Shown: positions 38,565 through 53,700 of the stretch, one piece after another
How the letters are laid out: each line of letters starts with the position of its first letter
How positions within the stretch are numbered: the stretch's first letter is position 1
Assembly: GCA_029962745.1 (NCBI GenBank)
Contig: CM057164.1
Location: 27,616,175 to 27,680,174, forward strand
Direction of reading: 5' to 3'
Length of the DNA: 64,000 nt
Source of the DNA: Echinometra lucunter
Lineage: Eukaryota; Echinodermata; Echinoidea; Camarodonta; Echinometridae
Notes under the pieces: generated by a model
Database searches by the model: none
Seen by the model: the letters and a program-made list of their open reading frames with translations, nothing else
Told to the model about the DNA's origin: nothing
Program-made: the position numbers and the translations under genes

Positions 38565-38745
38565 TTAACCATTGAAAATCTTCTCAATGGTTAGGCCTGG
38601 CATAGCATATATCGCCAAGGCAACGAACAGAATAACCAACGCAACTAGAAGTATCTTCAGCAGTGTCCACTTATACTGCGTCCAAAGTCCATAGTACAGG
38701 TTTCTGAGTGGGTTAGTAAACCAACCAACTGACCCGTCCGGACGA
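38565..38745 (-). CDS. OTOF: Otoferlin-like terminal exon D (most distal, most divergent)
   Basis: Acceptor GTGTATAG; 181 nt; stop TAA at 38565-38567. It encodes NRPDGSVGWFTNPLRNLYYG, then a hydrophobic helix and the tail YAMPGLTIEKIFNG. The invariant DTSF of the other three is replaced by DGSV, and the ending by IFNG. It is in phase with exon 52697-52797 and intact. Confidence 0.85.
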
Positions 38746-41700
38746 CTATACACGGTTAAAACATGGGCAGACAATGAAGTGGTTTGGGTAAGCATTTAGG
38801 AAGCATGCAAAAAGTGAAAAAAAAAAGATAATATGGTTAATATACATGACATGTGAAAGTTAATCAATATGGAAACATATTCTGCAGCCGTATTCAGGAA
38901 TTTTTCCGGGGGGGGGGGGGTGGACAAGAACATGTAATATGTTTGTAGGAACAAGCAAGTGAGGGAGCAACACACCCGAGCGGGTCACAAGGGAGCTTTT
39001 TCATTTCTAGAATTATTGAAATTGAATGAGCTAATAGTGCACACTTTGGGTAGAATTTTTGGATTATTTTCAATAAGAAAAGTAAGGTTTGAAAGTTTTG
39101 GGGAGGGGGGGGGGAGGAACTGCCCCTCTTCACCCCAACTGCGTCCAGCCATGTACCCCCATCTGTGACGTGGAAGAACAAAAACTTCTTTCATTGTATT
39201 TATATTCGCATTGTTTAAAATGACAAGGGAAGCTTGATAAATAAAGTTAACACTCATGCATAATACAAAAAGAACTGGAATCTAATGCTACGTTTACACC
39301 GTGTTCAGCTCTGTCCAACAACTGACGCCTGAACGGGATCGAACTTGAATACGGAGAAAAAAAAATTATACCACGGGCGCACTGCGTTTCGGGCAAACGG
39401 GGCTACCGTGACTGCCGGGAACATCGTGCAAACGTGCATAAACATGACTACTATTTTCCAGGCAAAATGACAACTGTAAAATTATAAAGGAATACAGTAA
39501 TGTTAATATATTGTCACCCCACAAACCACCGCTACATGTTCGATGGAAGGAACATCAAATGAAATGCAAAAATATATGGCAATGAAAAAATACATGGAAA
39601 GTACAAACATGGGATGAAAAGCAAAAAGAAAGAGATGAAAACATAGCACTTGGCAATGTCACAAGTGGTAAATAATTACAATTAGACACCAAGCATTTTC
39701 TAAAAGAAAAACATAACTCCTACAGATGCAAAAGAAATGAAAATGGAGATTAGAGGTGAATTTAAACATTAAGGATATTCATGGCAATCATAATGAAATA
39801 CAGATCAGAATAAAAGAACTACAGAACTTGGTAATAAGCTGCACAATCCAAATATGCACATAGCATGAATAAAACAAATCCTTGGAAGAAAATGCAAATA
39901 TGACTAGTAGCTGCTGTGAAAGGAATGTAAGATGGAAAAAAAAATATACAAAAAATACAAAAATAAGTAAGATCACAATAAACACAGATCAGATTGCGGA
40001 GTATAAATATGTTTATTGCCTTGCATGTCCAGAATCACATCCCAAAGGGAATATACAATCTCTATATAATGTTACATTTTCACAATCACTGACATAGTAT
40101 ACACAGAATCATCAAAGTTCTTCAGTACAAGCAGAATATAAAAAGAGTTGCTTTTAAATATTAGTTAACATTATTCACCTACCTGCTAATAAACAACATA
40201 TTTTTTTCTTTCGACTGAAACAGGTATTAGTGGCATATCATTGCATATACCTCAGAGATGGTACATCATATTTGACATGCAATTAAATAATTGCAGTTAT
40301 TCACATGATTGTATAGATTCATATGAATGCCTATACATCAAATAAATCACACTACTTTTTAGCATTATTGTTAATTCCATTCCTGCTCTACAAAACAAGC
40401 AATAAACCATGTTTCTTTTCAAAGTTGAAGAATATATCATAGTTGTATCTATCATGATATTTTTACAGTGAAAACACATTAATCCTTCAAAAATATACAA
40501 ATATAAAACCACATGCAACATTTAGGAATGCTATAAAATGCAGTTACCGTTTTTATTCTCTTTATACTGTCTTACATTGCTTTAGTTGGCAAAAATGTTA
40601 CAAAAATCAAAGGATTTAGAAAAAAAATTAGTACTGTTATTTGCCAATATAAATCATCATTTCTATGGAAGAGAAATATCAAATCAATCATCCTAAACCT
40701 ATCATTTGTGAAGACATTCATCTGTGATAGAAAGAAAAAAAACATACCCCACTAATAAGAGGAAAAAATTATATTTAATTAGCTACAGAAACTATGCAGT
40801 AATCATCTTTGAATATTAAATACAAAATTTTATTTTTTTCATGATTACTTCCAATGCTAGCATCACAAGAACATTTTTAGATCTGATCAATTCAACCCGA
40901 CTGCTTCCAACATTTGACAAATGATTTTCAAAGTGGAAGCTATAAGATTCATGATCTATGACTGAAACCAGTATCATTACATTACTACAGGATATAGTGG
41001 AAACACTGACTTTTGAGGCACAATGCAGAAACCAATAACTTTTATTAAACAGATAGACCCTGGCAGCTTATCTGAAAATAGATGAGATGTTTAAAAAAAA
41101 AAGAATGAGTTATTAAAGGAAAACCAACTGTCAGCTCTACTTTTTGAGTTGAATTTTAAAAAAATGCATTCCACACCCAACATGCTGTTGCATATGACTA
41201 TCAGCCAATCCGTTGTAACATGACCAAACTTTTACTACTTTACAGTTTATGTAATTATTAATTCTCTGGAATATCAGTAATTTGTTGAAGATTATACTTC
41301 TTCAATATTTTGTTCCATAATCCATGTAGGATGTTTCTATTTTGTTTGTACACTATTTTGAATAAATTCTTAAAAATAAATGCATTCTTATGAACAACTT
41401 CCCTTAATGAAGATTATCATTCCTTCTTAGCGCTCAGCACACTAAAGAAAACACAATACCTACCTATACATATTACCTGAAAAACTGAAATGCTGAAAGA
41501 CTAACAATTTTCAATGAAAGGCTTTCACTAAATTTGAAATATGAAATATTATGTGACATTCATGATGTCCAAATTCAATACAAAAAATGTAGGTATAATG
41601 TACAGTATAGACACAGGGCTCTACAAAAATCATACTACATATCAATTTGTAAGTTTGGAATACATCATAATGTGGAAAGAAAATGCAAGTTTTCTATATC

Positions 41701-50700: not shown

Positions 50701-53700
50701 CACACACATTTGGAATATATTAGCAAATTTTCAGGTTAATTCATAAATGAATAAGTGCACAAGTAAAGTCAGTCAATTAGAATTAAGAAAAAAGTACATG
50801 TAAAAGAATCAGACATAGAAGTAGCAGATATAGAACGAGTAGATGTAGAAGTAGTAGACACAGAAATAGTAGATGTGGAAAAAGCAGATGTAGAAGTAGT
50901 AGTTGTAGAAGTAGCAGATGTAGAAGCAGTAGATGCAGAAGTAGCAGATGTAGCAGATGTAGAAGTAGCAGATGTAGAAGTAGCAGATGTAGAAGTAGTA
51001 GACAGAGAAGTGGTAGATGTACAATTAATAGATGTAGAAGCAGCAGATGTAGAAGTAATAGACAGAGAAGAGGTAGACGTAGAATTAATAGATGTAGAAG
51101 TAGCAGATGTAGAAGTAATAGACAGAGAAGTGGTAGACGTAGAATTAATAGATGTAGAAGTAGCAGATGTAGAAGTAGTAGACAGAGAAGTAATAGATGT
51201 CATTGATTGAGAAGCAGTAAAGAAAAAGAGAAAGGATGAATAGGTCAAGAAGCCAAGAAAGAAGCCATTGTAAAATAACCATTGAAGAAAAAGGAGGTAA
51301 GAGCATCCCTCATTTACAAGGAGAGCAAGTTTAAAACAAGAAAACCAGGAATAAAAGAGGCAAATGAAACATTTTCATCCAAGTTAAATCGAAAAACAAA
51401 ATGCGTGAAACAAGATGCAGTCAAACCATGCAGGATGGGAAAGGAGAGAAAGTGAAAAACAAAACACATTAAATGAGTTAGTGGTGTTAGTGTGATAGGC
51501 CTTACTGCGAATGTGAGCACATATGTTACACAAAATATATGTGTTGCAATGTCTAAGCAATGGAAAAAAGTAGCACAGAGAAGTATGTATGCATTCTTTC
51601 AAACAATAAGCACAGGAAAAGCAAGTTTAATATAAACAACAATTATATGGCTCAGTACGTGATTATAGGCTTGTACAGTCAACTCTGCCTAATTTCTTGG
51701 GACTGAAGAAAATGCTTCGACTTAGAGAAAATTCGACTTATGAGGGGTCAAAAACGATAGAAAATAAAGGAATGGGACCAAGTACAGACCTTCGACTTAG
51801 GCATGCGACTTCGACTTATGCAGAGTTGACTGTACTTAGATTTTATATCACTTATCCTTTAGTGACAAATTGTATGTTGTCACTGAATGATAAAACCCAA
51901 TTTCCATAGAACCCCCTTTCAGTGTAGTAGTCCACATGTGCTCCTCTGACATCATCTTTAAGAACTTGTAGATTCCAGTCGGCCATGATGTAAATCAATG
52001 TTTGTGAAGAAAGGATGAAAGCCAGCCAGGAAACTTTTGCTGATTACAAAGCAGTGCTATGATATCATCTTTCGGAACTGGTGTAAATTTGCAAATCAGC
52101 AATTGATGGAAAGATGGATGGCAGAAGGTATCCCCTAGCAGTGATGTTGTGAAGAGTGGAAAAACATCTGTGGATAAGAACTTTTCCTTCTCCATCATGA
52201 TCTAAATGCTTCTCCATCGTAGCTCTTCTTTGCATGTCATAATCAAACCAAGGCTCCCTTAATCTTCCAACTCCCTCTTCTTCATTCATATATTCTATTT
52301 ATTTCTCATCCGCTCACTTTCATCCTTCCTTCTCTCAACATCCAATCTATTTCTCTTCGCAACAACAACAACTGCCTCTTTAGCCAAACACCTTCCACTT
52401 AAGATCAAATTTCATAGCATGAACCCTACTTCATCTGCTCCACAGGACCACTGTGCTCTTATATCTTCAGTCTGTAATACAGAGAAGAGTCTTAGATACT
52501 AACAACATCGTGACCAATCATTTTCTTCTGCACTTAATTCAAATAAACTCAACCAATCAACATTACATTATGTTGTAGGGATAAGTTCTCTCCAAATTGT
52601 TTCTTTGCTTTCCTGTCTGATAAGAAAAAGTCAGCAAAAGTTAGTATGGCAATTATAACATCAGAAATAACAATTGAAAACTGAGTAACAACATACTTTG
52701 GTTTTGGTAGAGGGTCTGGTTCCTCACGAGCCTTTCCTGCGGGGCTCTTCTCTGCTTCTTCCTCAGTCAGGAGCGCCATCTCCGCCTCCACTTTACCCTG
52801 GGTAGAGAGAGCAAAAAATGATGAAATGCTCAGATAAGCACACTGAAAAAAAGTGATATTGACCATTTTTACAGCACATTTTCAAAAATAACAACTGACC
52901 CGACATTCATGTACACATCTGGTCTATCCTTGAACATGGTTCTATGGAAATGTGGCAACATAAAGCTGTTCGTAAAGTTACACATGACTTTACAATGACT
53001 TGAACATAAAGTGCCAAATGGGATGCCCAAAGTTTTTCCTGATGTTTAAACAAAATGCGACCGCATTTCCCATAATCTCAATTTAATTGTGGGAAAAAAA
53101 TATAATTTGCAATAAATACAATTCTAAAAAAGCAATTTATAATGACTGAGAATCCCATTTGGCTTGCCATAAAGTGGTTCATAAAGTTGTTCACAACTTC
53201 AGGAATAGCTTTATGAAACACCCCAAGATATGTTAACCACATAAAAGCAATACCATCCAAATACCCTCCATACGGTATCAGCGGTTTATCGAAGACGTGG
53301 CCAAGCCTTGGATATAAAGAGCAGAGTTACAATGCAATGTTGTGTCCTTCCCTCCCCTTTCAAAATATTGCACCTTTTCTTTCCCCATCAATGCTTGAGA
53401 CTGCACTATTTCTTACCGTGAGTTCTTCTCCTTCCTTCTCGGACTTGGCGATGAATGGCCACCATCCTTTGGTTCTCTTCAGCTTGAAGATAGACATCAT
53501 GTTCATGGCTCGGAAAGACTCAATGGAACACTTCTTGGATGTCTTAGCTCCACGAGGGAACCTGTTCAGATCCAGTGAGACTGATCCTATAGACAAATAA
53601 CAGAATTATATGCTAAGATTCGGATTTCATCATTATAGAGAACAGACAGACAACTGATATTAGCATGATAGTGACAGCCAAGGAGGTACAACAATGGCAA

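What the first reader, a model, noticed from the sequence alone, without database searches (positions are those of the whole stretch)
38565..52797. Otoferlin-like gene with four intact, interchangeable transmembrane-anchor exons
Downstream of a phase-2 exon (52697-52797) lie four complete terminal exons on the same strand: 50429-50609, 45039-45219, 42965-43145 and 38565-38745. Each is exactly 181 nt, has an AG acceptor, supplies the third base of the split Asn codon, begins RPD, encodes one hydrophobic helix with a short tail, and ends in its own stop. Seen directly: conserved length, phase and motif across four copies. Known: vertebrate otoferlin is tail-anchored and has alternative C-terminal exon use. 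Inferred: this gene attaches one of four membrane anchors to the same C2 domains by alternative last-exon splicing, perhaps to place the fusion sensor on different membranes or in different cell types.
Basis: partly seen in the sequence, partly recalled or inferred. Interest (0 to 1): 0.88.

Follow-up and report, generated by a model that had tools for sequence, protein, structure and literature searches.

The report
Otoferlin gene with four membrane anchors
In a genome that is likely an echinoderm's, the single gene for otoferlin, a calcium-sensing protein of vesicle release, carries four intact versions of its last, membrane-anchoring segment, and the cell likely splices in one at a time, which would extend a two-anchor arrangement known from mammals.

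Summary
One otoferlin gene (minus strand, about 74 kb, body encoded once) ends in four phase-matched 181-nt coding tails. Each has an AG acceptor, completes the split Asn codon, matches Ferlin_C, has one hydrophobic helix and its own stop. Searches of the whole assembly with tails 3 and 4 each gave six matches: these four, plus one at each of two other ferlin-type loci. The four tails differ pairwise at 52-94 of 177 nt, with third codon positions least alike, yet have equal length and more amino-acid identity than random placement of the changes gave (0 of 20,000 trials in each of six pairs). Six other exon duplicates of the same gene are partial and carry gaps. One clade of the four tails is rejected (p 0.007); tails 2 and 3 group with a starfish tail. 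Tails 1 and 4 have Trp, tails 2 and 3 Cys, at one position next to the helix; relatives' tails show the same two states, and mammals are reported to splice two such exons (brain, cochlea). Likely mechanism: alternative last-exon choice puts different anchors on the same C2 domains. No RNA was available: use of any of the four, regulation and targeting are untested. Verdict: an expanded variant of a known kind.

The parts
52697..52797 (-). Common upstream exon with phase-2 donor (AAA|GTATGT), the splice partner of the four tails
50429..50609 (-). Terminal coding exon 1 (Trp form); 59 aa and stop TAA
45039..45219 (-). Terminal coding exon 2 (Cys form); 59 aa and stop TAG
42965..43145 (-). Terminal coding exon 3 (Cys form); 59 aa and stop TAG
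38565..38745 (-). Terminal coding exon 4 (Trp form, divergent, neutral lumenal tail); 59 aa and stop TAA
53417..57617 (-). Eight further internal exons of the C2E-C2F end of the otoferlin body: 57429-57617, 56817-56908, 56229-56399, 55881-56035, 55359-55501, 54662-54849, 54147-54388, 53417-53586
   Evidence: start 54849 set by the alignment
58278..58421 (-). Another body exon, placed by tblastn with starfish and acorn-worm otoferlin; exact borders not modelled
44815..44937 (-). Decayed partial copy of terminal exon 2 and its 3' flank (78.6% identity, 4 gap openings, which lie past the stop; 5' part of the exon missing)
44633..44808 (-). Second decayed partial copy of terminal exon 2 and its 3' flank (63.6% identity, 3 gap openings)
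53705..53798 (-). Decayed partial copy of the exon at 53417-53586 (72% identity, 1 gap opening), a control
57821..58174 (-). Three decayed partial copies of the exon at 58278-58421: 58061-58174, 57917-58012, 57821-57870 (71-80% identity, 2-4 gap openings), controls

Best explanation
The otoferlin gene in this window has four intact terminal coding exons, and its transcript is likely joined from the one donor at 52697 to any one of their four acceptors, so that the same C2 domains would be attached to membranes by one of four anchors. Shown: one gene body, four phase-matched coding tails with acceptor and stop, and sequence conservation that points to constraint on the protein. Inferred: alternative last-exon splicing, either with a 3' end of its own for each exon or with the earlier ones as stop-bearing cassettes, as reported for mammalian exon 47. 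Inferred from what is reported for otoferlin: the finished protein would be inserted by its tail through TRC40. Inferred: the anchors differ in what they do. Tail 1 keeps the Trp that dysferlin-type tails also have; tails 2 and 3 have a Cys at that position, on the cytosolic side next to the helix (a possible S-acylation site); tail 4 has Trp and a neutral lumenal tail where the others have +2. These differences would tune membrane sorting or partner contacts. History (inferred): a Trp/Cys pair arose before starfish and this lineage parted, probably before echinoderms and vertebrates parted; this lineage then holds a second Cys copy and a divergent fourth copy, made by local duplication.
For: Coordinates, phases, acceptors and stops. 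Otoferlin identity of the body and one collinear body over about 74 kb, with no second body between or after the tails. Six tail matches in the whole assembly, four of them here. Constraint: codon positions one and two more alike than three in all six pairs; dN/dS 0.31, 0.27, 0.15 for pairs 1-2, 1-3, 2-3; 0 of 20,000 random placements reach the observed amino-acid identity in each of six pairs; differences avoid the 15 invariant positions for tails 1, 3 and 4 (P 0.0009, 0.017, 0.009). Controls: six decayed duplicates of exons of the same gene. Precedent: same-species isoform models with identical last 480 body residues and one Trp, one Cys tail in four of five pairs examined; mammalian exons 47/48.
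Against: No RNA evidence for any of the four junctions. Tail 2 alone is not significant in the invariant-site test (P 0.19). dN/dS here measures whole paths between paralogues, so a recently dead copy would still pass; no DNA of a close relative was available. Exons 1 and 2 have no AATAAA or ATTAAA within 900 nt of the stop. No protein with a tail like exon 4 was found, and a search of 59-residue tails against capped candidate lists cannot show how many tails other species have. The Trp/Cys homology with vertebrates is not resolved.
Confidence: 0.72

Rival explanations
1. Only one Trp and one Cys tail are used, as in mammals; the others are well-preserved duplicates that are not, or hardly, spliced in.
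For: The gene produces duplicates that decay. Exon 4 is the most divergent tail and has no relative in the protein search. Tail 2 fails the invariant-site test alone (P 0.19).
Against: All four keep length, frame, acceptor, stop, helix and most invariant residues (14, 13, 14 and 12 of 15) at divergences where random change would keep the helix core non-polar in 0.4-0.5% of trials for tail 4.
Confidence: 0.2
2. The four tails are last exons of separate tandem gene copies, not alternatives of one gene.
For: Repeated 3' ends can come from tandem gene duplication (general knowledge).
Against: tblastn of the body finds no second set of body exons between or beyond the tails, the body lies upstream once and in order, and the window holds no N.
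Confidence: 0.02
3. The Trp and Cys tails of echinoderms and of vertebrates arose by separate duplications, so the two-anchor likeness is convergence (this bears on history and not on the splicing).
For: Vertebrate Trp and Cys tails held together as one clade are not rejected (p 0.383) and lie together in the free tree of 56 rows with weak support (88/65); all starfish, acorn-worm and window tails as one clade are not rejected in one set (p 0.157). Trp to Cys needs one base change (genetic code).
Against: The same one-clade test gives p 0.029 in another set; a clade of all Cys tails scores higher than the free tree in two sets (p 0.625; p 0.616) and is in the best tree of the third (48/78).
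Confidence: 0.3

Closest known systems
Mammalian OTOF exons 47/48 (TMD2 in brain, TMD1 in cochlea; PMC10394277 and PMC7768390, passages)
   Same: Two last coding exons with own stop, each giving a different C-terminal anchor to the same C2 domains; vertebrate tails have the same Trp or Cys at position 21 and, in two misjoined fish models, the order Trp then Cys.
   Different: Four intact tails here, with two Cys tails and a divergent fourth; use not shown here. That exon 47 is the Trp form and exon 48 the Cys form is inferred from order and the reported Leu-rich block, not from a human sequence read in a call.
Starfish and acorn-worm otoferlin (P0001, P0002, P0003, P0005, P0054)
   Same: Nearest bodies listed (71-73% identity). 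Starfish bodies 88-92% alike carry Trp or Cys tails that match at only 29-32 of 59. Tails 2 and 3 group with the Acanthaster Cys tail (100/96).
   Different: Only one tail per species is visible, because the database shows cluster representatives; the number of tail exons there is unknown.
Two other ferlin-type loci of the same genome (contig C9; L005, L006) and human dysferlin
   Same: Homologous tail with Trp at position 21.
   Different: One intact tail at each C9 locus in the 20-30 kb looked at; one of them also has a partial, gapped second copy.

Membership tests
Otoferlin | C2E-C2F end closer to otoferlin than to other ferlins | tested here: met
   626 bits otoferlin, 457 dysferlin, 350 myoferlin against solved chains (a 497-residue draft was the query). 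FER1L4, FER1L5 and FER1L6 have no chain in that list, so co-orthology with FER1L4/6 is open.
Otoferlin | Full-length body of many C2 domains upstream | tested here: met
   A 2198-residue starfish otoferlin maps in order from residue 76 to its end over about 74 kb, with some stretches without a block. C2 domains were not scored one by one.
Otoferlin | C-terminal Ferlin_C region with one hydrophobic helix | tested here: met
   Four of four tails above the Pfam cut-off (35.3-47.4 bits against 29.4); one stretch of 16-18 residues without charged or strongly polar residues in each, mean hydropathy maximum 2.9-3.2.
OTOF-type alternative anchor exons | Two or more last coding exons in the same phase, each with own stop | tested here: met
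OTOF-type alternative anchor exons | Alternative splicing into them, dependent on tissue | not testable with these tools
   no RNA data
OTOF-type alternative anchor exons | Tails homologous to the vertebrate pair, tail by tail | tested here: inconclusive
   Same Trp/Cys states; trees of 59 columns do not decide.
Tail-anchored proteins inserted by TRC40 | Single C-terminal helix inserted after translation | not tested
   Anatomy fits; insertion is reported for otoferlin (PMC7768390, passage) and was not tested here.

The most novel reading that the evidence does not exclude
Otoferlin's anchor is an ancient exon-coded membrane address: a Trp/Cys pair older than the split of echinoderms and vertebrates, in which the Cys form adds a lipid anchor next to the helix, and this lineage has widened the code to four addresses so that one calcium sensor serves four membrane targets in different cells.
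Probability: 0.25. Interest if true: 0.75.

Novelty: new variant of a known kind. Interest (0 to 1): 0.56.

Why it matters
Why otoferlin has two anchors in mammals is not settled; [quoted passage not shown] A gene with four apparently maintained anchors would allow a direct test of what the anchor itself decides, and would suggest that anchor choice is an old feature of this fusion protein and not one tied to the ear.

Tried and rejected
Separate tandem genes: rejected, no second body. Recent quadruplication within this lineage: one clade of tails 1-4 rejected, p 0.0073; tails 1-3 alone p 0.0448. All echinoderm and acorn-worm tails as one clade: p 0.157 without tail 4 and the C9 tails, p 0.0293 with them; treated as leaning only. 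Of 8 clades named four needed a test, and of 7 six did; p values are not corrected. Three of the four clade tests did not finish and were redone on chosen subsets (12 of 46 vertebrate tails, 8 of 46; subsets chosen by me). Tail 4 with the echinoderm Trp tails (p 0.471) or with the Cys tails (p 0.242): neither rejected; its branch is long.

Led nowhere: (tail 4 alone as query) had 25 candidates and no match. One search was meant to reach relatives longer than most vertebrate otoferlins, but its filler came out shorter than planned and it returned nearly the same list (20 proteins not), so no protostome tails were seen. The first class count used the wrong column and was redone. No Rfam match at gathering score in the window. 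The bacterial promoter scan does not bear on this gene.

Literature: searches, of which I saw listings with the starts of abstracts (20 of 87, 20 of 38, 6 of 7, 2 of 2, 15 of 990, 1 of 1, 3 of 4, 10 of 11,865 and 8 of 27 papers). None of those listed is, by title and start of abstract, about more than two otoferlin anchors or about anchor exons in an invertebrate. 'otoferlin' with 'echinoderm' gave 2 unrelated papers, with 'exon duplication' 1 unrelated paper. Passages read: PMC10394277, PMC7768390, PMC2923515 (12 of 14 places; alternative anchors are not mentioned there). Yasunaga 2000 was not read; it is cited through the two reviews.
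Full report
What is there. The four stretches named in the finding exist as described. Each is preceded by AG, starts with a pyrimidine that completes an Asn codon begun by the AA at the end of 52697-52797, encodes 59 residues from RPD to a stop, and is 181 nt long from acceptor to stop. 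The pyrimidine fraction before the four acceptors (0.64, 0.64, 0.77, 0.64) lies in the range of the nine internal exons modelled (0.59-0.86). The nearest AATAAA or ATTAAA lies 60 and 161 nt past the stop for exon 3 and 90 nt for exon 4, but 910 nt for exon 2 and 1218 nt for exon 1.

The gene. Nine internal exons with GT-AG sites and matching phases were modelled in the window; the start of one (54849) was set by the alignment to otoferlin. A 497-residue draft of the joined protein matches solved otoferlin at 626 bits, dysferlin at 457 and myoferlin at 350. A starfish otoferlin of 2198 residues maps in order, from residue 76 on, over about 74 kb that run from outside the window to exon 4, with some stretches without a block. 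The body is found once; there is no second body between or after the tails. In the whole assembly (742,976,193 bases in 2,266 contigs) tails 3 and 4 each find six matches: the four here and one at each of two loci on contig C9, whose tails look dysferlin/myoferlin-like by eye.

Are all four maintained? By pair, amino-acid identity is 23-39 of 59 and nucleotide identity 86-128 of 181; identity at codon positions one, two and three is 27-44, 39-53 and 13-31 of 60. Third positions of tail 4 against tails 2 and 3 (14 and 13 of 60) are at the level of unrelated bases; against tail 1 it is 20 of 60. Nei-Gojobori dN/dS is 0.31, 0.27 and 0.15 for pairs 1-2, 1-3 and 2-3; dS cannot be computed for the three pairs with tail 4. 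When the same number of changes is placed at random, none of 20,000 trials reaches the observed amino-acid identity, in six of six pairs. That no stop appears is by itself weak evidence: 9-23% of such trials have none. In 47 unique tails of relatives 15 positions never vary; the window tails keep 14, 13, 14 and 12 of them, and their differences from the nearest relative avoid those positions with P 0.0009, 0.19, 0.017 and 0.009; tail 2 is thus not significant alone. Random change of the size seen between tail 4 and tails 1 or 3 keeps the helix core free of charged and strongly polar residues in 0.4-0.5% of trials.

Natural controls. The same gene holds six decayed exon duplicates: two of terminal exon 2, one of the exon 53417-53586 and three of the exon at 58278-58421. 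All six are partial and have 1-4 gap openings at 64-80% identity; in the nearer copy of exon 2 the gaps lie past the stop and the loss is of the 5' part. Tails 1, 2 and 3 are 61-71% identical to each other over 181 nt with no gap inside the coding part; tail 4 has the same length and no significant nucleotide match. One C9 locus has a partial, gapped second tail beside its intact one. Duplicates in these genes thus tend to decay, and these four have not. A copy that died recently would still pass all these tests.

Two classes and their age. In 138 of the 140 relatives fetched (two misjoined fish models, P0004 and P0082, were set aside because their tails have other lengths) the last 59 residues have Trp (34) or Cys (104) at tail position 21. 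Tails 1 and 4 have Trp, tails 2 and 3 Cys. Dysferlin and the two C9 tails have Trp there, so Trp is probably the older state (inference). P0004 and P0082 show the order Trp then Cys in fish. Of five same-species pairs examined, four (three fish, one lizard) have identical bodies over the last 480 residues but one Trp and one Cys tail; the fifth, Xenopus laevis, has 97.7% identical bodies and may be two gene copies. Starfish bodies are 88-92% identical while their Trp and Cys tails match at 29-32 of 59. In the tree of 56 tails, tails 2 and 3 form a supported group with the Acanthaster tail (100/96) and tail 1 falls outside it; the support is 95/93 and 89/93 in two smaller sets. One clade of tails 1-4 is rejected (p 0.0073). 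So the Trp and Cys forms parted before starfish and this lineage did. Whether this is the same split as in vertebrates is not settled by 59 columns: a single Cys clade is favoured but weakly supported; separate origin in echinoderms and acorn worms is rejected in one set (p 0.029) and not in another (p 0.157).

How it would work. Mammals are reported to make two anchors from exons 47 and 48, in brain and cochlea (PMC10394277, passages; PMC7768390, passages), and otoferlin is reported to be inserted by its tail through TRC40 (PMC7768390, passage). By the same logic this gene would choose one of four last exons. The predicted products differ in the last 59 residues: Trp or Cys next to the helix on the cytosolic side; Asn (tail 1) or Lys (tails 2-4) at the start of the helix; lumenal tail charge +2 in tails 1-3 and 0 in tail 4. 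That the Cys is acylated, and that these features steer the protein to different membranes, is inference with no test here; of 7 papers that hold both 'otoferlin' and 'palmitoylation' the 6 listed are not about otoferlin by title.

What is not known. The relatives listed are cluster representatives from lists capped at 120, so the number of tails in other species is not visible. That the organism is an echinoderm rests on tail similarity to starfish (44 of 59 for tail 2 with Acanthaster, 37 and 33 with the two acorn worms); that it is an echinoid was not shown.

Noticed in passing
window 50749-51264: Minisatellite of about 15-nt period, 22 register positions, in the intron before terminal exon 1.
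   Followed up: no
window about 45010 and about 42940 (minus strand): The 14-mer GATGCCAATTTGAA stands 25-30 nt past the stop of both exon 2 and exon 3, with a one-base variant in the nearer decayed copy of exon 2; it may be leftover of the duplication or a 3' UTR element.
   Followed up: partly
L016 9663-9803 (minus; contig C9): A dysferlin/myoferlin-like gene of the same genome has a partial, gapped second tail just 3' of its intact one.
   Followed up: partly
P0082 (Labeo rohita otoferlin model): After a Trp and a Cys tail this misjoined model runs into a third hydrophobic stretch that ends in FNLF; it may be another anchor exon or a prediction error.
   Followed up: no
window 10265-12148 +: Open frame with POPLD and POP1_C domains, likely part of a POP1 gene.
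   Followed up: no
window 19255-19845 -: Open frame that matches Attenuator of Hedgehog, PF18800.
   Followed up: no
window 57821-58174 and 53705-53798: Several body exons of the same gene have decayed local copies, so exon duplication seems frequent here.
   Followed up: partly
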